From Mermis nigrescens (lineage: Eukaryota > Nematoda > Enoplea > Mermithida > Mermithidae): 64,000 nt of DNA. The DNA lies in assembly GCA_036768485.1 (NCBI GenBank), contig JAVLUZ010000154.1, forward strand, positions 29,513,792 to 29,577,791, read 5' to 3'. Below the pieces are notes generated by a model. The model ran no database searches, was not told the origin of the DNA, and was given only the letters and a program-made list of their open reading frames with translations. Shown here piece after piece: positions 11,688 through 55,867 of this stretch (the stretch's first letter is position 1; each line of letters begins with the position of its first letter). The position numbers were made by a program, and so were the translations under genes.

Positions 11688-11927
11688 CATACCTGGGCCC
11701 TGGGCGTAGGGGCTTTGGGGGTAACCCCCCAGAAACCAAAAGATCCCCCAAAATTCAATCTTTGAATTTTTTTTTGTTTTTTCGCAATTTTGATGCCAAT
11801 GGATAGTGTTTGATGAGAAACGTTGAAATGGTGTTTTTCGCCATACCACAATATTTTGACCCATTTTTTGACCTTTGAAAAAATTTTGCACCCCCCCCCC
11901 AAGACCTTTGGGGGCGCACACCCTATG
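11688..11927 (-). mobile_element. MITE family hAT-M1 in the DIMT1 intron
   Basis: Reverse-oriented copy beginning CATACCTGGGCCCTGGGCG and ending GCGCACACCCTATG. Near-perfect target duplication GTCCCCAT / TCCCCCAT (11680-11687 and 11928-11935). The hallmark GATGCCAATGGATAGTG and long C-tracts are present. Confidence 0.75.
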
Positions 11928-20994: not shown

Positions 20995-21944
20995 TGTAGA
21001 GATGACTCTACACCCCATTTTCGTTGCGTTGGTTCAACGCGAAATTCCATTCGTTTTGTGCTATTTGGTACATACATGCCGATGACTGTTTGCCCTAGAT
21101 GCTCAATTTCGTGCTTAATTTCCATTTGCACGTACGCGACCACTCAGCGTAACGCTTTAGTGTGTCGCCCGGGACCACCTTCCCTTTTAAAATTATCATA
21201 TCTTCATTTCCTTTCCCACACATATTTTCAATAAAAAATCCGGGATAGGAAAATGGGCACTTTCGGGCTTAATGCGACTTGAGTACGAATTGGTATGTGT
21301 GCTATCATATCATACGTGTGTTAAAACTCCATATGTGTGTGTCTCATATTCGTGTCTATATCGTTTGTACATTCTTTACCGTAAGCTTTGCCCATAGGCC
21401 TATTGTTATTCTCGTAGATCCATTCCGCGTTTCTTTGTCCGCGTTTGATACGCCTCTTTTTTGTATCGTTTAAAACTGCGTGCGAGCGCAGTTTTGACGA
21501 TCATTCCGGCACTTTAAGAATTTTTCATTTTACATTGAGCTTTCCCAGTTTTTCGCCAGCTTGTATGCTGTGCCCGTTTTCTTTTCCGTGTGACGTATTT
21601 TTCCGCAGGTAGACTCCCAGTATTTTGCCCCTGCTGGCTGCAGGAAAATCTCGTCGTATTTTTCGTCGCGTAGTGGGCAGGTCTTTTTCGCCCTTGCGCA
21701 TTTACTGTTTTACTTGTGTGCCTTCCCGGCCATAGTTGTATGCCGTTGGCAGGCTACGTGCCCTCATAATTATAGTGTTTGTTTTAACCGATTAGCGTAA
21801 CACGACAGTCGGCAGCATGCACCTTCATGCTGTCGCGTTTTTAATTGCTTCATAATTTTCTGTCCAAAAATATTGTAAAAATTAATTATTTCATTAACGA
21901 TGATTTGGACTCAGCTTGGTTCCAATGTAAGCTCTACACTTACA
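20995..21944 (+). repeat. 5' LTR of copy A (950 bp)
   Basis: Starts TGTAGAGATGACTCTACACC and ends CTCTACACTTACA. It is collinear with the 3' LTR except for a deletion of about 300 bp near its 3' end (between GATGATTTGGACTC and CTCTACAC). The terminal TG...CA is present. Confidence 0.9.
21472..21495 (+). promoter_or_regulatory. Conserved LTR hairpin
   Basis: Perfect inverted repeat AAAACTGCG / CGCAGTTTT around a TGCGAG loop. It is conserved in the 3' LTR (33462-33485) and in the reversed LTR near 44912-44931. Its place inside the LTR suggests a transcript structure; the function is not shown. Confidence 0.6.
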
Positions 21945-21945
21945 T

Positions 21946-21963
21946 TGGAGGTCATTCACGACA
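21946..21963 (+). promoter_or_regulatory. Candidate primer-binding site
   Basis: TGGAGGTCATTCACGACA starts one base after the 5' LTR, and its TGG complements the CCA tail of a tRNA. The matching tRNA was not identified. Confidence 0.5.
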
Positions 21964-22620: not shown

Positions 22621-22882
22621 CATACGTGGGCAGCAAGAAAATTCTGGGGGGTCCAAGATTTTTGAAGGTCAAAAAATGGCCTTAAAATGGTGATATGGCG
22701 ATAAAAACACCATTTTTCGACGTTTCTCATCAAGCACTATCCATTGGCATCAAAAAATTGCGAAAAAAACGAAAAAAATTTTCAAAAATTGATTTCTGGG
22801 GGGGGGTCTTTTGATTTCTGGGGGGGTCTTTTGGTTTTCTGGGGGGGGGTCCAGACCCCCCAGATCCCCACGCCCATGTGTG
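22621..22882 (+). mobile_element. MITE family hAT-M1 inserted in gag
   Basis: 262 bp from CATACGTGGGCAGCAAG to CACGCCCATGTGTG with a perfect 8-bp duplication GTTGCAAA (22613-22620 and 22883-22890). The net gain of 270 bp keeps the gag frame, but the MITE itself has an in-frame stop (about 22683). Confidence 0.92.
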
Positions 22883-24637
22883 GTTGCAAATGCAAACTCT
22901 GCAATTGCAGCCCGTTGAGCCACAACCGGTGCCCAACGTCACTGCAAACGCGGACCAGCAGCATTTAGCTCGCTTTGCAAATGCTGACTCGGATTCGCGC
23001 GTGCAGCTTGCAACGTCAACGCCAGTCCGTCGTTTGTCTATTCCAGTGCTTCCTTATCAGCAAATCGCGTCAGGTTTATCGCGTCCTACTGTTTCTGTAA
23101 ACGCTGAGCAGCAACATTTAGCTCGTTTTGCAAATGTTGAACTGTCTCCGCAAGTACAGATCGTTTCGCCAGCCATTCAGCCGGCCGTGAACCAAGCTAA
23201 TCCCGTAAATTCTGAACTTCCGCCACTTCATGTGATGCATATTCCGCAGAATCAAATTTTCGTGCCAAATACAGGTGCATCGATCCCACAGGATCAGAAC
23301 CCACCTCAGAATCAACAGAACCGAAGAGTTCACTATCCGGATCAAGCTACTGACTCTCCGCCGGAAAGTCCCAGGCGTCATAGATCTTCTTCAAGACGTT
23401 CACGGCGTCGACATCGTGACACGTCGTCTGATAGTTCAGAGAATACAGGTATTCGCTACCTAGCTGATTCTATGAATAGAGGTCCATTTTTGCAACAAAT
23501 TCAGTACACGATAGCCAATAAGAAGTTTTTTCAAGGTGAAAAAACAGATATTCGTGGATTTTTTCACGAACTTGAGCGATTAGCAAATGGCTATAGAATT
23601 GATGAAAGATCGTGTCTAGATTTGTTGCCATCGTTTTTCGATACCTATACGACTAGATTGTTTCGCTCCCTACCCAACGACGTTCGCGAATCTTATGAAC
23701 TCACGAAACAAGCATTAATTGCAGAGTTTCGGCCTATCGACTCAGATACATTGTTTGATAGATTTCTTGAGCGAAAACAGCACCCATCAGAGTCTGTGAA
23801 CGCTTATTTTTTGGCGTTACGCGAAGATCTCATTCGAGCTCAACCAGAAATTCAAGTTGACTCGATAGCTTTTGAGAAAATGCTCCGTCATCAGCTCAGA
23901 AAAGGGATGAACCCAGATATCGCGAGAAAAGCTTACAAAAGAGCGCCTGAAGCACCGCTTCAAGATTTTCTTCATGCTGCGCGTTGCATAGAGTTTGCGA
24001 ACCTACAGTATGCTTCAGCTAAGCAGCCTACGCCATATTTACCAGCAACTGCCGCTGCAGCATCCAGTAGCGTGTTGCCAAAAAATAATTTTCGGCGTTC
24101 AACGTATAGTCAAAACGAGACCCCCCGTCAATCTACGTCTTTTCGTCAATCGCGTCCAGAGACATCTAATGCTTTAGCGCAACGATATTGCGTGTATTGC
24201 AAACACATGGGCCACACCAGAGATGAATGTTTTCGGCGTCAGCAAAACAACAACCGAAATTACCGCAACAGCGAAGCTCACAATCCTAGTGAGTACGCGA
24301 ATCGATACCGTAGCCAATCCAGGCCAATGTTTCAAAACAATTCATCATCGTGGCGATCGAACTACCGTACTCCGTATAATTCTCGTGTGTTTCAAAACTC
24401 ACAGTATCCATCTACGTCTCAAAATTACGACTCCCGTCAAGATTTTCGACGTCCGAGCAATGATTTTTGGCAAAATTACGGTAATCGCCAGAACTACCGT
24501 AATCCTTACAGTAATACGCGATACTATGACAATGAAAGAAATATGTTTGCAAATAATCGTTTTGCAGAACATTCTCAGAATTATCGCCAGCCGAATAACG
24601 CGTATCGACAATTTCCGCAGCAATCTGTGCGTTCTAA

Positions 24638-27600
24638 CCCCCGGCAGTTACGTATTCGGTATCCTCCACACCCACCGTTACGTTTCCCCCACCGCAACCG
24701 ACCCAACCGTCATCTAATAACGAAAACATCGTAACTTCGTCTGTCTCGACTTCCGAAAATTCGGAACAGCTTTTTGCATCTCAAGCATTTCTCGAAGAAT
24801 ATCATCGTTTACAGAAACGTTTAGCAGTCTACGAAAAGCTAAACTCGCAGGTCAAAACTCAGGATGCAGCTAATAAAACCGTTGTTAGCCATGCATCTAC
24901 GAATTTGCCTACAATCTTAGCAGAAATCAACGGAATAAAGCTCCCTGCGTTAATTGACACAGGATCGCAAGTCACAATGATGACCACAAGCGCTTTTCTG
25001 CGTTTAGGTTTCAAATTGCCACCGAAGCAAGCAGCGCATGTTGTTCATGGAATTGGAAAAATGACAGCAACCGTGCGTTTCACCTATATCATGCATATCA
25101 CAATCGCAGAACAAACCACTCCGGCTGTTGTTTTAGTCATCGATGACTTACCGGAAGATTTGCTTTTAGGCTTCGATTTTTGCAAACAAGCTTTACTTTT
25201 TGTCAACACAGTCGAAGATTGTGCTTTTGCCAATGGTTTTCGTGTCGAATTACTATCCGCAAATGACAAAAAGCATTTACGCGTAAACCCTGATGCGCAA
25301 ACAGCGTGTCCAGTTTGTGCTCGCGTAACTGTTACCGAATCAATTGTCATTCAACCGCGTCACGAAGTTGTGACGCCCGGATATGTTTGTTGTGGTCAAT
25401 TCAATGACGAAATTGCTCTTTTCGAACCTGATAATGATTTCATGCTAAGCAAATCACTGTTCGTCGCACCAGCTATCATCGACACATCAGTCCCTGTTTT
25501 CCCGCTTCGCGTCTGTAACACGTCTAAGTCACCTATCACCATAGATATTGGAGAATTCATAGGTTCTTTAACGACTGAAGCTGAAATTGTGTCTCATGTC
25601 GCCCTATCAGACGATAGAGCACCCGAACTTTTTGCTTCGATCAACAAAGCCTTAAATGGTTCGGCAATAAATGCTCATCAGCAACAGCAGGTTCGTGATC
25701 TGTGCCAGCGTTATTCCTCAATTTTTGCCTTAAAAGGAGAACCCTTAGGCCGAACGCCACTTCTAAAGCATCATATCGATACAGGCGATAGTCCACCTAT
25801 CACAGGAAAAACATATCGCGTCGAACATTCGCGTCGAAAAGCGATGCAAGCAGTTATCGACGAAATGTTAGCTGATAAAGTGATTCGTCCAACTACAAGC
25901 CCATGGGCTAGTCCGTTATTCCTAATCGGTAAAAAGGATGGTTCTTTGCGTCCAGTTGTAGACTATCGTCGCCTAAATGAAGTGACCAAGACCCAAGTGT
26001 ATCCGTTACCTCAAATCGAAGATTATTTCGATGCTCTCGGATCGGCAGCGTATTTTTCTACGCTAGATCTCAAATCAGGTTATTGGCAAATCCCGTTAGA
26101 CAAAGAATCACGGGAGAAAACAGCTTTCATTTGCCCCGTCGGTCACTACGAATTCAATGTGTTACCTTTTGGTCTCAAAAATGCGCCAGCAGATTTTCAG
26201 CGCTTAATGGAATTAGTTCTAGCAGGACTAAACTGGAACAAATGCCTAGTTTACATCGACGATATCATAGTTTTTTCCCGAACTTTTCCAGAACATCTTC
26301 AAGACTTAGAGAAAGTTTTTAAGGCCTTGAGTGACGCAGATTTGCGCATTAAGCCGGACAAATGCCATTTTGCCCACAACGAAGTGCAATTTTTAGGGCA
26401 TAGAATTAGTTCTTTTGGGATCGCGCCAGACCCAACGAAAGTTGCAGATGTCAGAAGTTTTCCGACTCCGAAAAATGTGAAAGGCGTACAAAAATTCCTT
26501 GGCCTTGTCCATTGGTTCAAAAAGTTCGTAAAAGATCTCGCAAAAGTAGCTAAGCCACTTTTCAACTTATTACGAAAAGATATACCTTTTGTTTGGACTG
26601 AAAAGCATCAAGAAGCTTTCGAAAAAATCAAGGATGCTTTCACTTCTCCGCCAATCCTACAATTGCCAAAGTTTGATGATAAACATCAGTTCATATTGAC
26701 AACTGATGCCAGCAACTATGCTTTAGGTGCGATTCTCACCCAAAAGCATCTGCCGTCGGGTAATCGCTTCATACTCAGCTATGCAAGCCGAGTCTTGAAT
26801 TCAGCTGAGTGCAATTACGCCACGTCAGAGAAAGAAGCTCTAGCCGTTGTGTGGGCGATTAAATACTATCGTCACTATCTCTACGGTACAGAGTTCGTGG
26901 TTGAAACAGACCACCAAGCTTTAACATGGCTAATAAACGTCAAAGACCCGTCTAGTCGTCTTCGAAGATGGGGACTCAAGCTTCAAGAATACACGTATAA
27001 AATTGTGTATGTCCCCGGCGCATATAATTGTGCCGCCGATTTACTTTCGCGTCACCCCAAGTATGATGAACATGAGCGAAAGTATAAAGCTGAAAGAAAA
27101 GCAGTTGTGAACTTAGCTAATCTAGAATCCGAGAAATCCGAGTCGGAAGAGGATGATAATCCGCCCGACATACCTACTACGTCAAAAGCGAATAGAAATG
27201 TACCACCGGTATATTATGAAAGAAATATGCTGACAGATGCAGAAAAAGCAGAAATGCTAACGCCAGCTAAACTGTTGGCAGAACAACGACTTGACCCTGA
27301 AATCGTCAAAATCCGCGATTCTCTCGATGATCTTTCCGAGAAGAAGTATCGCGATGAATTTTTCGTCAGTCAAGATCTACTTTTTCGACGTTTTCAACCC
27401 AAACGTAGCCCACAAGTCATCTATCAACTCGTCATACCTAAATCTCTACGTCGTTTTATCCTATCAGAATTTCATGACTCAATTTTTGGTGCTCATTTCT
27501 CAGCCCGAAAAATTTTGCCCAATATCCAAATGAGATATTGGTGGCCAAGAATGGAAAACGATGTCATTGCATGGTGTAAAAATTGCCATACATGTCTGCA

Positions 27601-28843
27601 ACGTAAGATTTCGTCAATTCCAGCATCGGTACCCCTAAAACCGATTGAAGTCAGTGCTCCTTTTGATCTCATCGCATGTGATTGTCTTCACATGCCAAAA
27701 TCTATCTCTGGAAATGATCAAGTTGTAGTTTTCATGGACTATTTCACGAAATATGTAGAAGCATTTCCTGTTTCGGACATAAAAGCTACTACGATCGCAA
27801 ATCTTTTGCTTCGTGAAATCATACCTAGACACGGAGTGCCTAGACGTTTTTTGACAGATCAAGGATCGAATTTTACATCAACGTTAGTTTCTGAAATATG
27901 CAAAATATTGCATATCCAGAAAATTTTTACAACACCATATCATCCCCAATGTGATGGTTTGGTTGAGAGGTATAATCGAACGTTGATTGACTGTTTATCG
28001 AAGCTAAGTGCTCGTGATCAATATGATTGGGAACAGTATCTCCCATTTGCGTTGTTTGCTTATCGAGCAACGCCTCAAGCCTCGACGAATTTATCGCCAT
28101 TTGTCTTACTTTATGGTCGAGAGCCATCTTTTCCGTTAGATATTCAAATCTTGAATGATTTAACCCTTGACCCTGAATCGCCTAACCAAGTTGAAGCGTA
28201 TTTAGCCAGCCTAGTTCACTCCCTACGTGACTTACATGAGGCTGCAGCCATTAATTTAGCGAAAGCGCGTACGCATCAGAAGCGACAATATGATAAAAAT
28301 GTTTCCGAAACAACTTTTTCGGTTAACGATATTGTTTATCTGAATAACAAAGCAGTTATTCCTTCGAACCAAGGCAAGCTTGCTCCTAAGCAAGTGGGTC
28401 CATATCGTATAACTGAACTGCCAACTTCCGAAACAGCTCGGATTGTCTATGTACACAATCCGCTCGTGACTCATTTAGTTCATCGAAATAGGTTATTGCA
28501 ATCGCCAAAATTGCCGTTTTCCGATTTAATTTTGGAGAAACGCGCATATATTCCAGGCGATATTGTACTAGTTCAGGTCCCACGTTGTCCCGTTTGTCCT
28601 GGGATAGTCATAGATTTCTCAGAATTACCGGCTAGTGAACGCCATAAAAAGGAATGCGTTCCCGTCCGTCTACTCGTTATGTCTAAATCCAATCATGCGG
28701 TTCCCCTAAATAACGTTTACCCTTTTTCAGAACCCTATTTTACTCAACTATGTCCGACAAACCGTCAGAAAACTTGGATAACAACCGTCCAGAGTTCAAT
28801 TGCAACGGCCACACGCCGTGCAATGTCACAGAATTCCTCATAG
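24638..28843 (+). CDS. pol: Pol polyprotein: protease, RT, RNase H, integrase
   Basis: The open frame begins at 24638, in -1 relation to gag, and has no early ATG, so it is probably made as a Gag-Pol fusion. Numbering from 24905: aspartic protease with LIDTGSQ (DTG 18-20) and LLLGFDF; reverse transcriptase with FLIGKKDGSLRPVVDYRRL and YIDD at 450-453; RNase H with TTDAS (Asp601) and ETDHQAL (Asp669); integrase with an HHCC finger (His857, His864, Cys894, Cys897) and a DDE triad Asp926, Asp985, Glu1021 (35 residues between the last two). A GPY-type module (KQVGPYRI) near the C-terminus is typical of Ty3/gypsy. All catalytic residues are present, so this ORF looks functional. Its end overlaps ORF3 by 94 nt. 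Confidence 0.97.
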   Translation, partial: PPAVTYSVSSTPTVTFPPPQPTQPSSNNENIVTSSVSTSENSEQLFASQAFLEEYHRLQKRLAVYEKLNSQVKTQDAANKTVVSHASTNLPTILAEINGIKLPALIDTGSQVTMMTTSAFLRLGFKLPPKQAAHVVHGIGKMTATVRFTYIMHITIAEQTTPAVVLVIDDLPEDLLLGFDFCKQALLFVNTVEDCAFANGFRVELLSANDKKHLRVNPDAQTACPVCARVTVTESIVIQPRHEVVTPGYVCCGQFNDEIALFEPDNDFMLSKSLFVAPAIIDTSVPVFPLRVCNTSKSPITIDIGEFIGSLTTEAEIVSHVALSDDRAPELFASINKALNGSAINAHQQQQVRDLCQRYSSIFALKGEPLGRTPLLKHHIDTGDSPPITGKTYRVEHSRRKAMQAVIDEMLADKVIRPTTSPWASPLFLIGKKDGSLRPVVDYRRLNEVTKTQVYPLPQIEDYFDALGSAAYFSTLDLKSGYWQIPLDKESREKTAFICPVGHYEFNVLPFGLKNAPADFQRLMELVLAGLNWNKCLVYIDDIIVFSRTFPEHLQDLEKVFKALSDADLRIKPDKCHFAHNEVQFLGHRISSFGIAPDPTKVADVRSFPTPKNVKGVQKFLGLVHWFKKFVKDLAKVAKPLFNLLRKDIPFVWTEKHQEAFEKIKDAFTSPPILQLPKFDDKHQFILTTDASNYALGAILTQKHLPSGNRFILSYASRVLNSAECNYATSEKEALAVVWAIKYYRHYLYGTEFVVETDHQALTWLINVKDPSSRLRRWGLKLQEYTYKIVYVPGAYNCAADLLSRHPKYDEHERKYKAERKAVVNLANLESEKSESEEDDNPPDIPTTSKANRNVPPVYYERNMLTDAEKAEMLTPAKLLAEQRLDPEIVKIRDSLDDLSEKKYRDEFFVSQDLLFRRFQPKRSPQVIYQLVIPKSLRRFILSEFHDSIFGAHFSARKILPNIQMRYWWPRMENDVIAWCKNCHTCLQRKISSIPASVPLKPIEVSAPFDLIACDCLHMPKSISGNDQVVVFMDYFTKYVEAFPVSDIKATTIANLLLREIIPRHGVPRRFLTDQGSNFTSTLVSEICKILHIQKIFTTPYHPQCDGLVERYNRTLIDCLSKLSARDQYDWEQYLPFALFAYRATPQASTNLSPFVLLYGREPSFPLDIQILNDLTLDPESPNQVEAYLASLVHSLRDLHEAAAINLAKARTHQKRQYDKNVSETTFSVNDIVYLNNKAVIPSNQGKLAPKQVGPYRITELPTSETARIVYVHNPLVTHLVHRNRLLQSPKLPFSDLILEKRAYIPGDIVLVQVPRCPVCPGIVIDFSELPASERHKKECVPVRLLVMSKSNHAVPLNNVYPFSEPYFTQLCPTNRQKTWITTVQSSIATATRRAMSQNSS
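24683..24689 (+). promoter_or_regulatory. Candidate -1 frameshift heptamer TTTCCCC
   Basis: In the gag-pol overlap (24638-24734) the gag codons CGT TTC CCC contain an X XXY YYZ heptamer in the correct phase for a -1 slip into pol. A C-rich YYY is atypical for classic slippery sites, and no downstream pseudoknot was modelled. Confidence 0.35.
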
Positions 28844-31467
28844 CCTTGCATGCGGCAGCTGCACGCTTGCAGCTACGCTCAGGACCTACAGGTCAAGAGT
28901 CCCCACATATTGGGCGTGCCGGCTTCATTGCCGATATAGCGCCTGTAAGCCCGCGTGCTGAACCTCAGCGTTATCGTCGCATCATGGCTCAACGTCATTG
29001 GTATTTTGAGCATTTTGGCAGAGCGCCACTGACTGCGCCATATGTCCCAGCCAGCAATATCCGTATAGTCTTTGTAGATTCGCCCGCACAGTCATATGCG
29101 GCCATAGTCGCTATTCTTGCGCCGATGAACGCCTTAAATGGTCGTTTTCTTTTTGGCTTCGATTCAGAGTTTGTTAATGATCGCGTTTTTCTGCCATATT
29201 CCCAATGGGATGATCAGTATCGGGCCATAAGGGCCACGCATCACGATTCAAACGGTCCATTTGTCCGTTTCATCCAAATCGCGACAGTTCGCGGTCAAGT
29301 TTTTGTGTGGGACGTCGCACAGTTCCCACTTCCGCCTTTTGGCCTACATGAGTTGCTCACCATTCGACTATCAGATGTCGCCTTTGCTTGCCACGGATCA
29401 GACAATGACCGCATAGCATATTTTCATGTGTATGCGACACGTCTTTTTGCTTGGGAACACTATCAGCAAAGTCGCCGTCAGCGTCAGAGGCATCGCGAGT
29501 TATTCGAACGCAACGTGTTCGAGGCTCAAATAATTGATACTCTTCCGCTCGCCAATAATTTCACGAGAACTGTGGCAACCACTCCGGGAAATCATCGTCT
29601 TCAAACGCTTTTACAGTATATGTTCAATCTACAAATTCGTCGGTCAGCCAGAACGGCAGTAGGTCAAGCTTGGAATCGAGCTCCGTTGCCAGATCATATG
29701 GTTCGATATCTAATCACCGATCCACTCGGTGCTCTGGATCTGTATCTTTTGATAGTGCGTCATGCAGTTGATCGCTCATATATCGCTCTAACGGCTCCGA
29801 CCAATAGAGAGCGATTCGCCGGAGATGAAATGTCCGGAAATCAGAAAGTCGAAAAGGATCGAAAATTTGATATGCCTTTGGCTCAAGCCGGCTCAATGCC
29901 TGCAAAATCTAAAGCAGAGCTCGCCAAGAGAATCAAACGCAGAGATATTGCGGAACAGAAAAAGAAGGAAAAGGCTGAAGAATTCAAAAAGGGAAGACGA
30001 GATCGTAGACATTCTAACTCTAGCTTCGATGAGAGCGCAGAGGAATATGACGATGATGATAACGAATCAGACATCGAAATGGTGCAACCAGCTTTCACGT
30101 TAGCACCAGAAGCGTCGCAAGAATCGACTGCATCCTCGTCTCAAGCTCCTTTTGTCTCTGCACCTCCGTCTACCGATGATGATCAGCGCACAAGTGCGCC
30201 AACTTCCGTCTCACGGCCAGATACAGAGCCGAAATATCCTGATAAAGTCTACGAAAATGAAGAAGAAGCCCTCGACTATGATGAAGAAGTTTTTGAAGTT
30301 GTCGACAAAGCTTCCGGAAGTCCAAGTGAAGATGTAGCGGAACCTCCGCAAACATCTCAGCCAGCAATCACGGCTGAAGAAGAAATGATGATGCAAGATC
30401 AGCCGACTTGCAGTTACAAATATCTGATTGTTCCGGAAGGCAAAACGAAAGAAAAAAGCGATCATATTCGAAAATTGGAAGACGAATTTGCTCAAGCCGT
30501 CCACGAAAGATTTTTCAAAGATTTAGAGGTTGTGGACGAATATCACGAAGAACCAAAGGAACGTGCGCCACTGTCGCTTAATAAGCAACAAGCGCAAGAA
30601 TTCGCCCAAAAACGAGATTTCCTTGTGAGCCAGGAAGCTGAACATGCCTATCGGATGTACACAGAAGATTTTCGAGCTCATCTTGTCAATCTTTTGGGAC
30701 AAGAATTCGCTAATCCGCTGATCGAAACTCTAATTGCGAAGGCAAACGAATATATCGAACATATTTTGACTAGTTTCAACAATGTATATCAGGCCAACGA
30801 GCAACAATCATTGCCTAGAGTTGTTTTTAGCGGTCAACAATCCGCGCAAAATATGTCAATCGAAATTCGACCGGCCTTGCCAATCCCGTTTCTCAGCGAA
30901 TTTACGCAACATCCGCGTCCTTTCTACAACGATTCAACTTTTCGTCTAACTCGATTCTACGTCACGACCGGTTCAATGGTCTATGAAGTTGGCTTAGAGT
31001 TCGTAGCCAATCATCCAAGGTTGCTAGAACCACCTCAAATTGTGCGTCGAGCCAACTACACAATTCCGTCGGAATTCTTTCCGCATCGTCTTACGCCTGC
31101 GCCCGACATTCATGCTCCTTTGGCGTTAACAATTCGCCAAATGGCTGATATCTTCAGTTCAATGAACGAATTTTTCGAAGAATACAAGTCGACTTTTCGT
31201 TTCATTCCATCTTTTCAATCAACGACTTTCATGTCAGCGCCACTACTTCTTCAATTTCTCGACAATCGGTTTTTAAGATTCCTATTTTGGTATCGAGAAC
31301 CTCGAATTGCTTGGCGCATGGTCGAACAGATACGACGTATGCTTAGATCAATTTTCGTGGAAAGAGCTTTCAATCCGTTTCCAAAAGAAGTTTTCATCGA
31401 GTTTCCTGAAATTATTGAGACAACAACTGACTTATTTACCGCGCATAAGCGAATCCAGTTAATTTGA
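28750..31467 (+). CDS. ORF3: predicted DEDDy 3'-5' exonuclease fused to acidic linker and unknown C-terminal domain
   Basis: 905 aa, starting at an ATG inside the end of pol (-1 frame). Residues about 130-340 carry the DEDDy/RNase D-like signature: GFDSEF (Asp138, Glu140), ACHGSDNDRIAY (His215, Asp220) and YLITDP (Tyr320, Asp324), in the right order and spacing. Residues about 365-560 are a Lys/Glu then Asp/Glu/Ser-rich low-complexity linker. Residues about 565-905 form a mixed alpha/beta-looking region I do not recognise. There is no signal peptide or clear transmembrane helix, so it is not an envelope protein although it sits in the env position. Family knowledge: DEDDy exonucleases trim 3' ends of RNA or DNA. 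Inference: it could process element RNA or cDNA. A relic with the same Exo II motif in copy B shows it is an inherited part of the lineage. Confidence 0.8.
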   Translation: MSDKPSENLDNNRPEFNCNGHTPCNVTEFLIALHAAAARLQLRSGPTGQESPHIGRAGFIADIAPVSPRAEPQRYRRIMAQRHWYFEHFGRAPLTAPYVPASNIRIVFVDSPAQSYAAIVAILAPMNALNGRFLFGFDSEFVNDRVFLPYSQWDDQYRAIRATHHDSNGPFVRFIQIATVRGQVFVWDVAQFPLPPFGLHELLTIRLSDVAFACHGSDNDRIAYFHVYATRLFAWEHYQQSRRQRQRHRELFERNVFEAQIIDTLPLANNFTRTVATTPGNHRLQTLLQYMFNLQIRRSARTAVGQAWNRAPLPDHMVRYLITDPLGALDLYLLIVRHAVDRSYIALTAPTNRERFAGDEMSGNQKVEKDRKFDMPLAQAGSMPAKSKAELAKRIKRRDIAEQKKKEKAEEFKKGRRDRRHSNSSFDESAEEYDDDDNESDIEMVQPAFTLAPEASQESTASSSQAPFVSAPPSTDDDQRTSAPTSVSRPDTEPKYPDKVYENEEEALDYDEEVFEVVDKASGSPSEDVAEPPQTSQPAITAEEEMMMQDQPTCSYKYLIVPEGKTKEKSDHIRKLEDEFAQAVHERFFKDLEVVDEYHEEPKERAPLSLNKQQAQEFAQKRDFLVSQEAEHAYRMYTEDFRAHLVNLLGQEFANPLIETLIAKANEYIEHILTSFNNVYQANEQQSLPRVVFSGQQSAQNMSIEIRPALPIPFLSEFTQHPRPFYNDSTFRLTRFYVTTGSMVYEVGLEFVANHPRLLEPPQIVRRANYTIPSEFFPHRLTPAPDIHAPLALTIRQMADIFSSMNEFFEEYKSTFRFIPSFQSTTFMSAPLLLQFLDNRFLRFLFWYREPRIAWRMVEQIRRMLRSIFVERAFNPFPKEVFIEFPEIIETTTDLFTAHKRIQLI

Positions 31468-32259
31468 TCGCGCACGGATCCGCCAATCACGTGTCCACTC
31501 GTTTTTCCACGCTATGCCGCTCGCCAACAAATCCAAGGTTATTTGGATATAACTCTTCCAGGCCAATTAGAAGAAATTCGCAACCGCCAAAGCAACCGCG
31601 ACGCGTCTGCGACTCGTACAGACGAGCCGCCCACTAAATTGCGTCGATCTACCGTCGATTTATCTATTGAAGGTCAAATCGCCTTACGCCGTCGTCGCAT
31701 GGAACAAGAGCGACGCGACCGTAGGTCTACGCAGGCTATTGAGGAAACGCCACAATCATTCCATATTCGCCGTACTACCGATTTCGCCATTACCTCTACG
31801 GTTCGTCAGCCAAACGTTTCGTCGCAACCTACCAAACGTCTTACATCGCGTCAACGTCATTATAATCGTGTCGAACGTAGTCGCCAATTACGCCGCGCCG
31901 CTAGAGCCAAACGATCGGCTTCGCAAGCTTCTGCTCAACCGGCGGCCCAACCGTCTGCTTCGGGCCGTCGCAGTCCACGTCCGTCGCGTTTAGACAATCA
32001 TCGCCGTCGCGATTCCGCTGCGCCGCATCGCCCAGCTCTGATGACTGTATCTGTGCCACGCGTTACGGTTACGCAATCGCAGGATCGTTATCCTGTTCAG
32101 CAGCAAATTGCCGCGCCGCATTTTACGCCTATTCCGTCGCGTGGAAACAACCGCGCTCATTCTACGTCGCGCATTACGCCAAATTATTTGCGCACAACTG
32201 ACGGTCGTCGTACCGCTCAGTCGTATTTGCCTCGCGATCAATCGGATCGCCGCAATTGA
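31468..32259 (+). CDS. ORF4: basic Arg/Ser/Gln-rich protein in frame after ORF3 stop
   Basis: The frame continues without any other stop from the TGA that ends ORF3 (31465-31467) to 32259, about 263 codons. There is no in-frame ATG until about 31699. The product is very basic, with RRRRMEQERRDRR, RQLRRAARAKRSASQ and Pro/Ala/Ser-rich spacers, and looks disordered and nucleic-acid binding. No family is recognised. Either it is the C-terminal extension of ORF3, reached by TGA readthrough or separated by a recent nonsense mutation, or it is made from a spliced message. Confidence 0.6.
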   Translation, partial: SRTDPPITCPLVFPRYAARQQIQGYLDITLPGQLEEIRNRQSNRDASATRTDEPPTKLRRSTVDLSIEGQIALRRRRMEQERRDRRSTQAIEETPQSFHIRRTTDFAITSTVRQPNVSSQPTKRLTSRQRHYNRVERSRQLRRAARAKRSASQASAQPAAQPSASGRRSPRPSRLDNHRRRDSAAPHRPALMTVSVPRVTVTQSQDRYPVQQQIAAPHFTPIPSRGNNRAHSTSRITPNYLRTTDGRRTAQSYLPRDQSDRRN

Positions 32260-32987: not shown

Positions 32988-34238
32988 TGTAGAGATGGCT
33001 CTACACCCCATTTTCGTTGCGTTGGTTCAACGCGAAATTCCATTCGTTTTGTGCTATTTGGTACATACATGCCGATGACTGTTTGCCCTAGATGCTCAAT
33101 TTTGTGCTTAATTTCCATTTGCACGTACGCGACCACTCAGCGTAACGCTTTAGTGTGTCGCCCGGGACCACCTTCCCTCTTAAAATTATCATATCTTCAT
33201 TTCCTTTCCCACACATATTTTCAATAAAAATCCGGGATAGGAAAATGGGCACTCGGGCTTAATGCGACTTGAGTACGAATTGGTATGTGTGCTATCATAT
33301 CATACGTGTGTTAAAACTCCATATGTGTGTGTCTCATATTCGTGTCTATTTCGTTTGTACATTCTTTACCGTAAGCTTTGCCCATAGGCCTATTGTTATT
33401 CTCGTAGATCCATTCCGCGTTTCTTTGTCCGCGTTTGATACGCCTCTTTTTCGTATCGTTTAAAACTGCGTGCGAGCGCAGTTTTGACTGATCACTTTTT
33501 CCACTTTAAGACTTTATCATTTTACAGTGAGCTTTCCCAGTTTTTCGCCAGCTTGTATGCTGTGCCCGTTTTCTTTTCCGTGCGACGTATTTTTCCGCAC
33601 GTAGACTCCCAGTATTTTCCCCTGCTGGCTGCAGGAAAATCTCGTCGTATTTTTCGTCGCGTAGTGGGCAGGTCTTTTTCGCCCTTGCGCATTTATTGTT
33701 TTACTTGTGTGCCTTCACGGCCATAGTTGTATGCCGTTGGCGGGCTACGTGCCCTCGTAATTATAGTGTTTGTTTTAACCGATTAGCGTAACACGACAGT
33801 CGGCAGCATGCACCTTCATGCTGTCGCGTTTTTAATTGCTTCATAATTTTCTGTCCAAAAATATTGTAAAAATTAATTATTTAATGAACGATGATTGGGC
33901 TCGGTTCGAATTTCCGTGCTGTTGAATTCTGTCCTTGTGCTACACTATACTTAGGAACCTTCAATATTTTCAAGCACCGGAATTCGGTCCCAAAACAAGT
34001 TAAATAATAATCTTTTTGAGCCCTCAATTAGGTTTCCGGGGAACTTACTTTAATTAGGTACTTAATCTCAAATTGGGGTTAAGTAAGTAAGTTTCACTAG
34101 GTGCGCGCAGTAGAGGGCCGGGCTATCTTGATAGGCCGGGGCCGGGTCTTACCCCCGAGTCGCCTTTTTGTGCGAGCGCGTGAGATTAAGCTAGGGTTAA
34201 GTAAGCAAGTGAGTGTAGACTTCGGCCTACACTTACCA
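32988..34238 (+). repeat. 3' LTR of copy A (1251 bp)
   Basis: Starts TGTAGAGATGGCTCTACACC and ends GCCTACACTTACCA. It contains the same hairpin (33462-33485) and, unlike the 5' LTR, an extra segment of about 300 bp (33905-34215) that is also present in the reversed LTR at 44134-45440. The longer form is therefore probably ancestral. Confidence 0.88.
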
Positions 34239-37351: not shown

Positions 37352-37924
37352 CCCTTCGAGGTTGCTAGCTACAACCGACCTGGTCAGTCATCTTAAAAAT
37401 TATTTTTCATATCCAAAAATCATTATTTTTGACTATCTAAACATGTGTAACGTTTTGTTCACCTCTGTTATTGTGTCGACCGTGTTCGTGGCAGGGCGCA
37501 TTCAAGTAAGCGTTCGTGGCAAAGCTTTTGTGTATCGTGGTAAGGTCACCAATATTTCTTTTATTTCCGTCGAGTCGACCCCTGGCGTCGAAGGTGTTGA
37601 TGACACTATTATTTTTCCATTTCCGTCACCCTCAGGCGACGATTCCTCATCATTTTCCCTCGACGATATATTTTGCCACATAGGTTTTTTGCCTACATGT
37701 GCTCTAAGCTCGCATGCTATACGCTGCTCACGCTTAGTCTTACACATATCTTTTCATTTTCACGTTAGTTACAGCTTACCTAGTGTAAGTGAGTACTATA
37801 TACGCTGAAGATACCTTTTTCGATCTCGAAAAAAGGTTAGATTCGAAACATTTTTCGCAAAATTCCGAATTGGTCAAATTTCTTTTACCAAGCGTTACAT
37901 TTTTAAACGTTTTCATACCTAAAA
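37352..37924 (+). other. Untranslated leader of copy B
   Basis: From about 37508 it is nearly identical to 55868-56271 in front of the copy C gag, including ACATAGGTTTTTTGCCTACA and a GATCTCGAAAAAAGG stretch just before the gag ATG. Confidence 0.7.
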
Positions 37925-39838
37925 ATGGCTGGTAAGAAAACTTTAAAAACGTCTCCAGTGAAGAAAAAGCCTCCGACTCCTTCTAATTTGGTTTGCCAAC
38001 AAAAAACCGTACCTGCTGACTCTAATTCGAGTACAAATAATGACAAATTATCCTCGGCTGTTACATGCTTCTGCGTGTTTCACATTCTGACGATGAGTAT
38101 ATACTTAACAATGCGTGATCGATCATTAATAATTATGCTAACCCTCTTGAGAGATAATTTACATAATGATACGATCATCGATATCATACGCACACCCTTA
38201 ATCACGTCAAACCACCAGGACCTGGTTCTGGGCACGCATAAATTAGCCTCCGATAGAAGAAGTTGCAATAGTGGCGTAAGCATAGGAGACTGAAAATAAT
38301 TGCGCCGAGCCTATTGTTACTAATCAACTTATATTTGAGACTCTGCAATGTATACGTATGCAGTTTTCGAACCTTCTTCTGCAAGTAAATCAGATAAAGA
38401 GGAAGATTCGGAAGAAATGCGTAAACTTCGAGCGGAATTCAAGTAATTTACTTTAAGCTTCGCAAATAGTTTCTAAACGCATTGAAATCAACCCATCTCA
38501 AAATTCGGGTTATGCGGAATATTTACCTGCGACTTTGCATGCCATCCTCACCAATTTCACAGAAGTCGTTATCTCGGCACATCGCTTTAGTCAACTCGAA
38601 ATGCGCCTTCATCTGAACCTAATTTCATTGAATTCGACTTTGCAGCCGAGGTTAAACCCTCCTCCGCTGCCATATTTTCCTTTAAACGTCAAAATACCGC
38701 CAAACAATTTCCGTTTCGAATCCTTCTAACATCGAAATTCCGCAAAATAATTCTATCTTGCATTCTTCAAATATAGAAATTCGGCCACAAGAACTTAACT
38801 TGTCTGGCGTAAATATTTGACCTAATAATTTGCGAAATTCATCTATGCAATTACCCGAGTCGTCCGCAAGGAGACATCGTGTAAAATTTTCTGATGAAAG
38901 TTCGAATAATTCTGATCGCCCGCATTGTCCGCCATTCACGCCAATAGACATAGTCCACAACGTCATCGCCATTGTCACCATCATGATTCCGATTCCTCAT
39001 CTTAGTTGCTTTGCATAGCAAGTCACACCTTGCTGATACTCTAAATTGTGGACCTTTCATGCAGCAAATGCAAATTGCTGTTGCAAATAAAAATCTTTTT
39101 AATGCGGATAAACCAGATATACGAGCATTTTTTGCAGAGTTCGAATCACTTGCTGACTTTTACGACATCGATAAATTGGTTTGTGTCAAATTCATGTCAT
39201 CATTCTTAGATCCCTATGCTTCGCGCTTATTCCATTCGGTTACCTGCTGATATAAAACAATCTTATACGAAATCGAAATATGCGTTTATAGCGGAATTTT
39301 GTCCTTTTGGACACTGAAATGCTTTTTGATCGTTTTTTAGAACGTAGACGAGCAGCCTAACAAATCGGTTAAAGCATATTATCTTTTCGATTTGTGGACA
39401 ATTGATAAAGCGCAACCGCATCTTGAAATCGACTGTGATCATTTCAACCATTTGCTGCGTCATCAATTGAAAAAAGGTTTATTACCCAAAATATCACAAG
39501 AAGCGTATCATCGCGCACCCCGAGCATCGCTGGCTGAATTCTTAGATAATGCTTTAAACGCTGAGTTCGCGAATAATGAATACCCAAATAAATAAGCGTT
39601 AACGCCCTATGTATCGGTAACAGCCGCTCTCCTACAGGAGGCGCAATACTCAAAGATACATTTCGCGCATCTAACCTAAATGAGCCAGATCGCTTGTTCC
39701 AGAAAACATTTATCGTTTGTTGTGCGTTGACAAACCAGAAAATTCTTCTCATAAATATTGCACCTTTTGCAAACGCACAGGTCATATCTACTGAAGAATG
39801 TTTTACACGTCGGCGTACAACAATCATCTAATAATACT
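37925..39838 (+). pseudogene. gag: gag of copy B, 5' part, decayed
   Basis: Starts MAGKKTLKTSPVKKKPPTPS. Later pieces in shifting frames match the copy A Gag: PFMQQMQIAVANK with IRAFFAEFESLAD near 39050-39170, and CDHFNHLLRHQLKKG near 39435-39480. The zinc-knuckle region near 39755-39800 (CTFCKRTGH-like) is also broken. Several frameshifts and stops make it non-functional. At 39838 it is cut by a 7.6-kb insertion and resumes at 47417. Confidence 0.88.
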
Positions 39839-40990
39839 TACCCAAAATATCTCCGATGGAACAAAAAAGATGAATATAGTTGGAATTGTGGATTATTAAG
39901 GATGTAAAAGGATGGGACTAGGAAAAATCTACCTAAAGTCGCGAAACCTGCTAAAAATCACACTTTCTCTAAGCAACGCAAAAAATCGAAGTATATTCTG
40001 CAGCCCCTAAAAAGTGTCTTTTTTAAATAATGTTCAAAGTTTCAGATAAGAGTGTATAAACGAAATCTGTAATGTTTGTTTTTTTAAATTGATGGCAAGT
40101 AGCAACGCTGACTAGCTTCGTATCCTGATCGATAGAAAATTAAGTGGTATTGTATTTAAAGTTGTTTTATTTTGTTCTGAGCATTAAAGCAAGCAAAGCA
40201 GCGGCCGATTGATTAGTGCACACAATCCTTAAGGGCATGCTAGTGTACCTCACATCTAGTGATGTAAAAGATCCAGATTTTTACCCAGATCCAGATCCAG
40301 ATAAAGATCGGGTTCAGATTTTCTGGCAGATCCAGATCCAGATCAGATAACCAGATCAGAAAATAACCAGATCCAGATCCAGATCGTTTTGCCAGATCAA
40401 AATTTAAAAAGATCCAGATACAGATCCAGATCCAGATAAAAATATTTTTTGTGCAGCAATTTGTATTGCTAAAAAGCAGGGCATAAAGCGCCCAAGCCCA
40501 CATGGATTGGGGGTCTCGGGTGGCAGGACTAATATAACAGCCCCCAGAGGGGTCTGGGGCAGAGCCGAGGAAAATTTGCATTTTAGAGCATTTACATAAA
40601 AATGATATCAGTAAAAATAGCTTAAAAAGTAAAAACTCACAAGTTTAGACTTTTACCAATGGGCATGAAATTGAGGCATGAAAAATGTAAAAATTATTAC
40701 AACAGCTTTAATTGACAACTTTATAAACAAAACGGCATTAAATTTTCACAGAACGTGAGATGTCTGGAATTTGGCAACATTGTGGTTAAACAGGAGAAAC
40801 AAATGCTTCTTTCGATTGCTTGTAAGAAAGAAAGGATGTATTATTTCAGAGGGATATCACTGTCAAATAACAAACGATACATTACCTAACAACACAAAAT
40901 GCAATACTATGAAGAAACCTGCTTAATTTCAATTCAACAAAGAAAAACGCTGTTAAAATTCATGAAAAATGACAGATGCACCTACTAAAA

Positions 40991-41418
40991 CTATACATGT
41001 ACAGCATAGAAATTCTGGGGGTCAAGGTCAAATTTTTTTCAAACATCAGAAGAAGCGATAAAAATGGCCCATGGGCACTAAAAACATTGTTTTTAGACGT
41101 TTCTCGATGTCGCGCATCCACTGAAACAACTTTTATAACAAAAATTTTTCGAAAAATGTCAAAATTTTCCCATTTTTAGGCAAAAAAGTCTCTCAAAGGT
41201 CAATTCTGATGATAATTTATGTGAAAAAAACAACCTTCAATACATTTTTATCACTTAAGTTACTTTTCTGCAGAGCTCAGAGCTTTGAAAATTTTTCTAA
41301 AACCAAAAAAATTATGGGGGGTCAGCGGCACTTTTTGGCCATTCTAAGGGGGGGTCAGCACGGATCTAGGGGGGGTCAAAATCCCCAGCAGACCCCTCCC
41401 CCCACCCCGCGTGCATGG
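40991..41418. mobile_element. hAT-M3-like MITE, diverged
   Basis: TACATGTACAGCATAGAAATT followed by CTGGGGGTC matches the reverse of the hAT-M3 right end (12886-13290 copy). The far end reads CCCCGCGTGCATG. No clear target duplication. Confidence 0.45.
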
Positions 41419-41426
41419 GTGATGTC

Positions 41427-41685
41427 CACACCTGGGCGTGCGGGGGTTTGGGGGTATGCACCCCCTTGAGAAACCAAAATACCCCCCAGAAATCAAAATA
41501 CCCCCAGAATTCAATTTTTAAAAATTTTTTTTCGTTTTTTTCGCAATTTTTTGATGCCAATGGATAGTGCTCGATGAGAAACGTCGAAAAATGGTGTTTT
41601 TCGCCATACCACCATTTTTAAGGCAATTTTTTGACCTTTGAAAAATCTTGCACCCCCCCCAGAATTTTCTTGCTGCCCACGTATG
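41427..41685 (-). mobile_element. MITE family hAT-M1, complete copy
   Basis: Reverse copy from CACACCTGGGCGTGCGG to CTTGCTGCCCACGTATG with a perfect 8-bp duplication GTGATGTC (41419-41426 and 41686-41693). Confidence 0.88.
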
Positions 41686-41690
41686 GTGAT

Positions 41691-42961
41691 GTCTCAACAG
41701 CCCCACCAGTCCCAACAGCCTCACCGTTTCAACAGCCCCACCAAAATCCCAACAGTCCCACCCGTCCCAACAGCCCCACCAGTCCTAACAGCCCTACCGT
41801 TCCAACAGCCCCACCAATAATCCCAACAGCCCTACCAATCCCAACAGCCCCACCAATCCCAACAGCCCCACCGTCCCAACAGCCCCACCGTCCCAGCAGC
41901 CCCACCAGTAATCCCAGCAGCCTCACCATTACTGCAATTGCTATTATACAATATAATATAATCAGGCAATATTAATTTTTTATGAAAGATATTTTTTTGA
42001 CTATTTTCCGAATTCGTATATTCCATCAAGACCATAAACGAGTGTGCAGGTTTACATTTTCAGAATAAGTCTACCTGAGAAACTGGTAGACCTGCCAGAA
42101 TTGAAGCCTCAGCATTTGTGCGCAATCCAGGATTTTGCCTCATTCAAGTCAACTCGCAAGATTGGATTCCTGCTCATTATGGTCTACTCTACACTGCCAG
42201 AAAAAAATGAAAAAGATTCTAGTGAAAAAAGGAAAGATAAGTGTTAAAATTGAATGAAAATCAAAACTTTCATGCTAATCTGCTTCAAAATAGCCAGAAA
42301 ATGTGGATTAGCGTAGTTTTAACGCTATTTTAACATTCATACCAGTTTTGAGGTCAATTTTTGGCTCAAAACTCATTCTCCAGACCGGTCGTGCTGTGCA
42401 TCTATGATTATAACAGTGAGGCAGTTGGAAACAACATTGGCAGCGAACAAATTCTGTGGGTCTGGTGGGTTAAAGTGACCAAAAAATGTGCTAAAAATAG
42501 AATTCTGGGGGTCTAACATAATTTGGGGGATTTCCAGAATTTCGGGTTGGGGGTTAAACTCTAAACATCCCTTCCCACCACGCTTATGTGTGCTTAGGAC
42601 AGTGCGACTGTTGGAACGGTAGGACTGCTGGAACGGTGGAACTGCTAGGAATTGATGGGGCTCGTGGGACTGGTGGGGCTGTTGGGATTATTGGTGGGGC
42701 TGTTAAGACGGTGGGGCTGTTGGAACGGTGGGGTTGTTGGGACGGTGGGACTGTTGGGATTGGTTGGGCTGTTGGGATTGGTGGGCTGTTGGGATTGGTG
42801 TGGCTGTTGGGATTATTGGTTGGGCTGTTGGGATGGTGGGGCTGTTGGGACTGGTGGGGCTGTTGGGACTGGTGGGGCTGTCGGGATTATTGGTGGGGCT
42901 GTTGGGATGGTGGGGCTGTTGGGACGGTGGGGCTGTTGGAGACTGGTGGGGCTGTTGAGAT
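41691..42961. mobile_element. Foldback-like element with mirrored minisatellite arms
   Basis: The left arm (41691-41930) is an array of 16-18-bp units CAACAGCCCCACC(A)(G/A)(T)(C)C. The right arm (about 42600-42961) is the same unit on the opposite strand. The outermost units read TCTCAACAGCCCCACCAGTC on both sides. The unarrayed centre (41931-42600) is AT-rich and non-coding. The structure resembles foldback transposons whose arms are tandem repeats. The Gly/Leu/Val and Pro/Thr frames across the arms are repeat artefacts. Confidence 0.65.
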
Positions 42962-43256
42962 ACAATCCGTGCATGTAAGGCTACAACTAATTAGATGACC
43001 TGCCTACAGTAAATCGTAAAACAGAAAGAGTACCATCGTGCAAAAATAACTTTCTGATCTGTTTAACCAGATATAACTTGACTAAACAGATCCAGATCCA
43101 GATAAAGATTGGGTTCTGATTTTCTGGCAGATCCAGATCCAGATCAGATAACCAGATCAGAAAATAACCAGATCCAGATCCAGATGATCTGGATCTGGAT
43201 CTGAATCTGGATAAAAAGATCAGATCCAGATGATCTTTTACATCACTACCTACATC

Positions 43257-50031: not shown

Positions 50032-50033
50032 TA

Positions 50034-54991: not shown

Positions 54992-55867
54992 AAGTCGCGA
55001 ACCAGTCGATTTGAATGAATTTTGCACAGCAATGGAGGAAGTAGCTGCTGCTAAGCAGATAAGCTTCCCTAATCCATTGCCGCAAATTTAATTCATTCTA
55101 ATTTATTTTCAGGATACGATTCTCAATTCCTTAATTATCGAAAATTCATTTTTTTGGGATTGGGAAGTCCTTTTTCAGAAAAAAAATTTTTTTGCCGAAG
55201 TACGAGCATAAAAATGTACCTTTTGTCCATTATATTCAACTCACGAGCCCTCGCGGTCATAATTTTTTTGTTTGTTGGGATGTTTCGCGATTTCCGACAC
55301 CGTTGTTTGGACTGCACCAATTGCTAGCAATTTCCTTTGGGATGTAAGGCTAGTGTGCCACGATCCGAACAATGATCGAATCACATATCACCACAACAAC
55401 GGTGATGCCGTTGTTTCAGTCTGTGTGGGACAGCCTGGTGTTGAGGTTACCAAAGTTGCAGGCCGCTGCCAGCTCTCAGCTGGGCCCGGTCATAGCTATG
55501 GTAACCAAAACAGCCGCTGCTTCAATAACCACACCCGCGCCGGCTACTGTGACTATTTCACAAGCCGAGTCGCAAATCGAAACTCTGATGGTTGGAATTG
55601 AGCCATCATCGACCACAACGCAAATGATTGCTAGGCAATTGTTTGCGACATTGTCACAAGCGTTGGCGGGTTCCTTGAATCTGTTTGGAACGACCCAGCC
55701 TTGCTGTTGCCAAAGTTTCAGGTCGCTACCAGCTCTCTGCTTGGCTCGACTATAACTTTGACAACTAAAACCGCCAAGGCCAGTGCCGCCACCAGCCGCA
55801 TTGCAAGCAAGTGTCGCGTAAAGTATGCAGGTATGTCATCAGTTTGGAGATTTCTGCCCAAATCGAA
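54925..55867 (+). pseudogene. ORF3 (exonuclease) relic of copy B
   Basis: An ATG at 54925 lies inside the end of pol in the same -1 relation as ORF3 of copy A, but a stop follows after 14 codons. At 55341-55400 the frame reads WDVRLVCHDPNNDRITYHH, matching the Exo II region DVAFACHGSDNDRIAYFH of copy A ORF3. The DxE and YxxxD parts are missing. After it come two imperfect copies, about 260 bp apart (55447 and 55707), of a segment encoding LPKxQxAxSSxLG and TKTAxAS, not found in copy A. The region ends at the junction with copy C. Confidence 0.7.

What the first reader, a model, noticed from the sequence alone, without database searches (positions are those of the whole stretch)
28750..31467. 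LTR retrotransposon carrying a DEDDy exonuclease ORF in the env position
ORF3 of copy A has the full residue set of a DEDDy 3'-5' exonuclease (Asp138, Glu140, His215, Asp220, Tyr320, Asp324) on a 905-aa protein with an acidic linker and an unknown C-terminal domain. Ty3/gypsy elements normally have nothing or an envelope there. I recall exonuclease-type third ORFs being described for retroelements of bdelloid rotifers, so the idea is not without precedent. This window, however, is TE-dense with long introns and does not look like a bdelloid, and the C-terminal domain is unrecognised. The nuclease could trim element RNA or cDNA ends, or act against host RNA.
Basis: partly seen in the sequence, partly recalled or inferred. 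Interest (0 to 1): 0.87.

Follow-up and report, generated by a model that had tools for sequence, protein, structure and literature searches.

The report
Exonuclease-like third gene in retrotransposons
Several families of a retrovirus-like jumping gene in this genome carry a conserved third gene that looks like an enzyme for trimming RNA or DNA ends, in the place where retroviruses keep their envelope gene; a similar case is known from rotifers, but this protein is built differently and its job is unknown.

Summary
In detail: 28750-31467 is an open 905-codon frame behind a Ty3/gypsy pol, with all residues named. It is not a chance frame. Relatives, many with open frames, occur in six other groups of copies (my names B-G) of the same 524-Mb genome. 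The exonuclease region is the most constrained part of ORF3 (pooled pN/pS 0.12). The acids and tyrosine are mostly kept: D138 16/17 rows, E140 17/17, D220 16/21, Y320 16/18, D324 15/18.

Membership in the DEDDy exonucleases is probable, not proven. PF01612 is the recurrent Pfam match but always below cut-off. The AlphaFold2 model is poor (mean pLDDT 43); its first 11 structural matches are DEDD-fold entries, none significant.

Correction: 905 aa is a truncation. In 7 of 14 copies the frame runs to 1162-1169 aa through an Arg-rich tail.

Precedent: DEDDy ORF3 of bdelloid Juno/Vesta elements (PMC5408684). Differences: no dUTPase in pol, a conserved C-terminal domain, a basic tail. New variant of a known kind; host unidentified, function inferred.

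The parts
20995..21944 (+). 5' LTR of copy A; appears to lack about 0.3 kb that the 3' LTR has
   Evidence: 97.0% identity of 20995-21912 with 32988-33902, 21 mismatches in 913 compared positions; end at about 21944 read by eye (inferred)
21945..21960 (+). possible primer-binding site directly behind the 5' LTR
   Evidence: position and TGG near its start, read by eye; no tRNA was matched (inferred)
22878..24734 (+). gag frame (618 aa), interrupted upstream by a ~260-bp repeat at 22621-22882
   Evidence: 38-51% identity to gag pieces of the other family in the window; no Pfam gag match
24905..28843 (+). pol: protease, reverse transcriptase, RNase H, integrase; no dUTPase match
28750..31467 (+). 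ORF3 of copy A, 905 aa, truncated relative to sister copies
29107..29799 (+). DEDDy exonuclease-like domain, residues 120-350 (D138, E140, D220, Y320, D324)
29800..30429 (+). variable acidic linker, residues 351-560 (net charge -20)
30430..31464 (+). C-terminal domain, residues 561-905; 640-905 conserved in family C, function unknown
   Evidence: 34%, 1.8e-43; no credible Pfam or PDB match
31468..32259 (+). Arg-rich C-terminal tail of ORF3, in frame but behind copy A's stop; part of the open frame in sister copies
   Evidence: pN/pS 0.31 among eight copies
32988..34237 (+). 3' LTR of copy A
   Evidence: end inferred by eye and from the inverted LTR-like copy at 44241-45436
55085..55394 (+). 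decayed ORF3 remnant of copy B (another family), with Exo I- and Exo II-like pieces

Best explanation
ORF3 is an accessory gene of a group of Ty3/gypsy elements. It makes a non-envelope protein of about 1170-1400 aa: a short N-terminal part, a DEDDy (DnaQ/RNase D-like) 3'-5' exonuclease domain, a variable linker, a conserved C-terminal domain and an Arg-rich tail. Most likely mechanism (inferred): tail and C-terminal domain hold the protein on nucleic acid, probably RNA, and the metal-dependent DEDDy centre trims 3' ends of RNA or single-stranded cDNA, which helps the element replicate or escape silencing. Shown: frame, position, conservation across families, purifying selection, near-conservation of the catalytic residues, no convincing transmembrane segment. 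Inferred: fold, catalysis, substrate and benefit.
For: Only Pfam match of the window's domain is PF01612 (E 0.065 against 24,736 families); it is matched by 10 of 19 rows (best 7.1e-4) and 7 of 21 rows of a second, overlapping alignment (best 1.1e-4), and over nearly the whole domain in family E (18.2 bits). hhalign to five solved DEDD proteins: E 0.0049 over 126 co-linear columns, against 0.31 for a pol control. Foldseek: ranks 1-11 and 20 of 27 matches are DEDD-fold entries (my count). Catalytic columns kept in most rows. Exonuclease region pN/pS 0.12. Many copies open: 145 of 150 scored family C domains have no inner stop (my count). Basic tail in families A and C.
Against: No PF01612 score reaches the cut-off of 23.6 bits (shown scores 13.4-18.2); only 1 of 4 full-length relatives and 3 of 8 domains searched singly match it. 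Both structure models are low-confidence; no Foldseek match has E<=0.001 and rmsd is mostly 13-19 A. A five-sequence profile of my own did not separate ORF3 (5.1 bits) from shuffles (top five 5.9-9.5). hhalign probability is only 7%; the comparison with RNase D alone gave 15 columns. The Egalitarian match of profile A2 (E 0.067) vanished with profile A4 and A3 gave none. D220 is Asn in 5 of 21 rows and Y320 is His in family G. No substrate or activity data.
Confidence: 0.6

Rival explanations
1. The domain has the DEDD fold but works mainly as an RNA-binding adaptor, as PMC5408684 states for Maelstrom and EXD1; catalysis is weak, or lost in some families.
For: Asn at D220 in several family F copies with open frames and His at Y320 in family G; Egalitarian was the only PDB sequence match of profile A2 (E 0.067) and an Egalitarian-BicD entry is Foldseek rank 3; basic tail.
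Against: In families A, C, D and E the acids and the tyrosine are kept in most rows, and constraint is strongest in this domain. The Egalitarian sequence match did not recur.
Confidence: 0.25
2. The exonuclease is a counter-defence factor that degrades host small RNAs or other RNA of the silencing machinery.
For: By analogy only: the abstract of PMC7968707 (search listing) says the arenavirus exonuclease takes part in suppressing host innate immune signalling. The ORF is conserved in many copies.
Against: Nothing in the sequence points to a small-RNA substrate; no expression or small-RNA data.
Confidence: 0.2
3. ORF3 is an envelope or cell-to-cell transmission protein in disguise.
For: It sits in the env position, overlapping the end of pol; other elements without Env use a transmembrane protein there (PMC11952523, abstract).
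Against: No clear transmembrane segment: highest mean hydropathy of 19 residues 1.59 in copy A and 1.68 in a family C frame; long charged linker and tail.
Confidence: 0.03
4. The motif set is convergent and the domain is not homologous to DEDD exonucleases.
For: No profile match above cut-off and no confident model; nothing at E<=1 among 8000 scored candidates of the protein database; the home-made profile failed.
Against: Pfam, hhalign and Foldseek point to the same superfamily, with the motifs in register and conserved between families.
Confidence: 0.08

Closest known systems
DEDDy ORF3 of bdelloid rotifer LTR elements Juno and Vesta (Rodriguez, Kenefick and Arkhipova 2017, PMC5408684; passages and outline read)
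   Same: LTR retrotransposon with a DEDDy exonuclease ORF downstream of pol in the env position.
   Different: Juno and Vesta pols carry a dUTPase, this pol shows none; the paper reports DEDD changed to DEED, here the acids read D-E-D-D; here there is a conserved C-terminal domain and an Arg-rich tail.
Exonucleases of bdelloid Terminons/Athena (Penelope-like) elements (PMC5408684 and PMC6431247, passages read)
   Same: Retroelement-encoded DEDDy exonuclease.
   Different: Another class of retroelement.
EXD2, WRN, Egalitarian and apicoplast DNA polymerase exonuclease domains
   Same: 20 of 27 Foldseek matches, including ranks 1-11; an Egalitarian chain was the only PDB sequence match of profile A2.
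   Different: Cellular proteins; none of these matches is significant, and the Egalitarian sequence match did not recur with profiles A4 and A3.
P0121 and P0122, pol proteins on unlabelled contigs
   Same: Closest pol relatives in the protein database, 55% and 50% identity over 98% of pol.
   Different: Whether their contigs (9980 and 7483 bp) carry an ORF3 could not be seen.

Membership tests
DEDDy 3'-5' exonuclease (DnaQ-like, PF01612) | Exo I D-x-E | tested here: met
   D138 16 of 17 and E140 17 of 17 rows with a letter there
DEDDy 3'-5' exonuclease (DnaQ-like, PF01612) | Exo II aspartate | tested here: met
   D220 present in copy A; 16 of 21 rows, Asn in the other 5
DEDDy 3'-5' exonuclease (DnaQ-like, PF01612) | Exo III Y-x3-D | tested here: met
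   copy A Y320/D324; Y in 16 of 18 rows (His in family G), D in 15 of 18
DEDDy 3'-5' exonuclease (DnaQ-like, PF01612) | score above the curated Pfam cut-off | tested here: not met
   13.5 bits against 23.6 for the window's domain; highest score shown 18.2 bits, family E
DEDDy 3'-5' exonuclease (DnaQ-like, PF01612) | RNase H-like DEDD fold with the acids together | tested here: inconclusive
   models with mean pLDDT 33.5 and 43.0; matches mostly DEDD entries but none significant
DEDDy 3'-5' exonuclease (DnaQ-like, PF01612) | 3'-5' exonuclease activity | not testable with these tools
   needs protein
Ty3/gypsy LTR retrotransposon | LTRs and pol in the order PR-RT-RH-IN | tested here: met
Bdelloid Juno/Vesta-type element | DEDDy ORF3 downstream of pol | tested here: met
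   position; exonuclease identity probable
Bdelloid Juno/Vesta-type element | dUTPase between protease and RT | tested here: not met
   no dUTPase among the 12 Pfam matches of pol at E<=1
Bdelloid Juno/Vesta-type element | common ancestry of the ORF3s | not tested
   rotifer ORF3 sequences not held; host not identified
Egalitarian/EXD1-like adaptor | closer to this subgroup than to other DEDD proteins | tested here: inconclusive
   E 0.067 with profile A2, absent with A4 and A3
Retroviral or env-like protein | transmembrane segment | tested here: not met
   hydropathy scan only: highest 19-residue mean 1.59 in copy A, 1.68 in a family C frame, both around the usual border of 1.6 (border recalled)

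The most novel reading that the evidence does not exclude
A whole, highly amplified group of Ty3/gypsy elements has an RNA-handling factor of its own where an envelope gene would sit: a DEDDy/Egalitarian-like domain plus C-terminal domain and basic tail that binds the element's RNA, trims its 3' end and/or carries it towards the germ line or the capsid, with some families (Asn for D220, His for Tyr320) having turned it into a pure RNA-binding adaptor. An RNA-processing or RNA-transport factor in the env position would be a new way for a retroelement to persist.
Probability: 0.15. Interest if true: 0.82.

Novelty: new variant of a known kind. Interest (0 to 1): 0.6.

Why it matters
In the papers I opened, DEDDy ORF3s of retroelements are described from bdelloid rotifers only. 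Here such a gene is conserved between several element families of one genome, under purifying selection and present in very many copies, joined to a second conserved domain and a basic tail. That makes the question what a retrotransposon gains from a 3'-5' exonuclease directly testable with expressed protein, and offers natural variants of the catalytic residues (families F and G) for comparison.

Tried and rejected
Protein database search with ORF3: nothing at E<=1 among the 8000 candidates scored; low-complexity acidic words may have crowded out true relatives, and only lengths of 0.55-1.75 times the query count as candidates. Scans of viral contigs with ORF3 and with pol, and of prokaryote genome contigs with ORF3, gave no confirmed relative. 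A profile of my own from five DEDD sequences scored ORF3 at 5.1 bits, below the top five of the shuffles reported (2887 of 5000 made, 5.9-9.5) and below one of 313 other window frames. Single-sequence AlphaFold2 failed (mean pLDDT 33.5). The Pfam CTD12 match of the C-terminal region (E 0.0017, 19.3 bits, cut-off 25) was rejected because it is below cut-off and did not appear in four relatives. NCBIfam gave no usable match and Rfam none in the window. Host identification by the SL1 RNA family and comparison with host PF01612 genes did not complete. Literature searches (mostly listings) showed DEDDy or DnaQ-like exonucleases of retroelements in PMC5408684, PMC6431247 and PMC6338049; PMC5718144 was listed but not opened; most subscription journals are not held.

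Full report
What is there. The window holds a Ty3/gypsy element (copy A) between LTRs at 20995-21944 and 32988-34237 (outer ends partly inferred by eye). The alignable LTR part (20995-21912 and 32988-33902) differs at 21 of 913 compared positions. [quoted passage not shown] no dUTPase is among its 12 Pfam matches. The long gag frame opens only at 22878, just where a ~260-bp repeat found elsewhere in the window ends, so gag of this copy is damaged. ORF3 (28750-31467, 905 aa) overlaps pol by 94 nt in another frame.

D138, E140, H215, D220, Y320 and D324 are present. A motif pattern, written after seeing the protein and so not unbiased, matched 30 (loose) or 6 (strict) of 400,000 shuffles. More important, the frame is conserved. 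Copy B in the same window (LTRs 37515-38098 and 55871-56443), of another family, holds a decayed piece with Exo I- and Exo II-like remnants at 55085-55394. In the whole genome (524 Mb, 860 contigs) ORF3 as query gave 63 matches with 50 of 2402 candidates scored. The copy-B piece gave 150 matches, 150 of 873 candidates scored. The domain of family C gave 150, 150 of 2767 scored, all those listed at 91% identity or more, 145 of 150 without an inner stop by my count. The domain of copy A gave 154 matches, 150 of 1504 scored, among them further families at 41-49% identity with frames of up to 1304 aa (1392 for family C) free of stops. These counts are lower bounds, and haplotigs in the assembly inflate them.

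Correction of the length. I read 14 copies of family A (L002-L015). The frame ends at residue 905 in 4, earlier in 2 (641 and 706), at 1162-1169 in 7 and at 1081 in 1. Twelve of the 14 are open over residues 1-905. Family C runs on to about 1390 aa, and its tail reads like what lies behind copy A's stop (31468-32259): both are Arg-rich (49 Arg in 263 residues, net +30, in A; 59 Arg in 411, net +41, in C). The separate-looking ORF at 31543-32259 is therefore the end of ORF3. L003 on contig C69 is 99.9% identical to copy A and has the same 26,400-bp distance to its copy B, so it is probably an allele or haplotig and no independent copy.

Architecture across families. I call the groups A (window), B (decayed), C, D, E, F and G; the names are mine, C and D are close to each other, and E and F too (tree, with some weak forks). 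A against C: 37% over residues 20-335 (1e-56) and 34% over 640-905 (1.8e-43), with a linker that hardly aligns. The open frames of E, F and G show the same order of parts by eye; D was fetched only around the domain. A pol end was seen upstream of ORF3 in B, C, E and F; no pol match was seen in the fetched stretch of G, and D was not examined. Pol and ORF3 overlap by 91 nt in the two family C copies measured, in the same relative frame as in A; family E came out otherwise (131 nt, another frame) from a partial pol match, which I do not rely on.

Selection. Pooled pN/pS among 8 of the 23 aligned family A copies is 0.12 for residues 120-350, 0.21 for the linker, 0.18 for 561-905, 0.31 for the tail and 0.68 for the first 119 residues. 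Single comparisons of copy A with 13 copies gave 0-0.32 for the exonuclease region. Pairs are not independent; neutral decay after insertion raises the ratios, so they overstate rather than understate them. L002 (copy A again) and L022 (broken match) were left out before aligning.

Is it a DEDDy exonuclease? For: PF01612 is the only Pfam match of the window's domain (13.5 bits, E 0.065 against 24,736 families). It matches 10 of 19 rows of a first alignment (best 7.1e-4) and 7 of 21 of a second, overlapping one (best 1.1e-4), and nearly the whole domain in family E (18.2 bits). hhalign against five solved DEDD proteins gives E 0.0049 over 126 co-linear columns, probability 7%, against E 0.31 for a pol control. 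The full-length AlphaFold2 model has mean pLDDT 43, yet of 27 Foldseek matches ranks 1-11, and 20 in all, are DEDD-fold entries (9 EXD2, 4 WRN, 6 apicoplast DNA polymerase, 1 Egalitarian-BicD complex whose chain I did not check) by my count (model). Against: nothing reaches the curated cut-off; the full-length window protein gave no PF01612 match at E<=1, 4 full-length relatives gave one and 8 domains gave three. Foldseek's best E is 0.45 and rmsd is mostly 13-19 A. The Egalitarian sequence match of profile A2 (E 0.067) was absent with profile A4, which matched only a WD-repeat protein at E 0.048, and with A3. A profile of my own did not separate ORF3 from shuffles. RNase D alone gave a 15-column match.

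Catalytic residues. In the 21-row alignment D138 is kept in 16 of 17 rows with a letter there, E140 in 17 of 17, D220 in 16 of 21, Y320 in 16 of 18, D324 in 15 of 18. H215 is Tyr in 3 of 20 rows, all of family C. Some departures are decay (family B pieces, L054, L014), but two look like states of a lineage: Asn at D220 in five family F copies (L071, L072, L073, L074, L076, against Asp in L067 and L075) and His at Y320 in family G (L068, L070; L069). Some families may have lost or altered catalysis.

How it probably works. No 19-residue window exceeds a mean hydropathy of 1.59 in copy A or 1.68 in a family C frame, so an envelope role is unlikely. A nuclease centre, a conserved C-terminal domain and a basic tail suggest a protein that sits on RNA or cDNA and trims 3' ends. 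Whether this serves replication, escape from small RNAs or RNA delivery is decided by nothing here. A pure adaptor role, as PMC5408684 states for the inactive DEDD derivatives Maelstrom and EXD1, is the main rival.

Comparison with what is known. Rodriguez and colleagues (PMC5408684; passages and outline read) describe DEDDy ORF3s in Juno and Vesta LTR elements of bdelloid rotifers, acquired at least twice and shared with Penelope-like Athena elements; DEDD is there changed to DEED, and those pols have a dUTPase, which this one lacks. PMC6431247 (passages) repeats it for Terminons, and PMC6338049 (passages) lists the DnaQ-like exonuclease among accessory domains of LTR elements. My searches showed no other report, but the library misses most subscription journals. 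The nearest pol proteins lie on unlabelled contigs (P0121 55%, P0122 50%).

Verdict. A real, conserved and selected ORF3 with a probable DEDDy exonuclease domain, common to several element families of one genome: a new variant of a known kind, with an unsolved C-terminal domain and function.

Noticed in passing
5676-5945, 22621-22882, 41427-41688, 61535-61797 (partial: 7985-8198, 11724-11898): A ~260-bp interspersed repeat, 87-90% identical between full copies and in both orientations, rich in runs of C/G; one copy sits at the start of copy A's gag frame.
   Followed up: partly
37515-56443 and 59864-64000: Two copies of another Ty3/gypsy family: copy B with LTRs at 95% identity (13 mismatches in 571) and other sequence between its pol pieces (50031-53038), and a similar copy cut off by the window's end.
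   Followed up: partly
window around 28750-55341 and contig C69 around 2758772-2785363: The same pair of element copies lies at the same 26,400-bp spacing on contig C69, as expected of an allele or haplotig left in the assembly.
   Followed up: no
28556-28768 (pol residues 1218-1288): Weak PWWP-domain match at the C-terminal end of pol (E 0.0012, 19.8 bits, cut-off 25.6); PF00855 is precomputed for the related pols P0123-P0125.
   Followed up: no
L071, L072, L073, L074, L076 and L068, L069, L070: Lineage-like changes at catalytic positions: Asn for D220 in five family F copies, His for Y320 in family G.
   Followed up: partly
40286-40425, 43087-43185 and 42600-42961: Repeat arrays: CAGATC-rich units and GGGGCTGTTGG-like units.
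   Followed up: no
44241-45436: An inverted LTR-like sequence, 81-87% similar to copy A's 3' LTR; perhaps a solo LTR.
   Followed up: no
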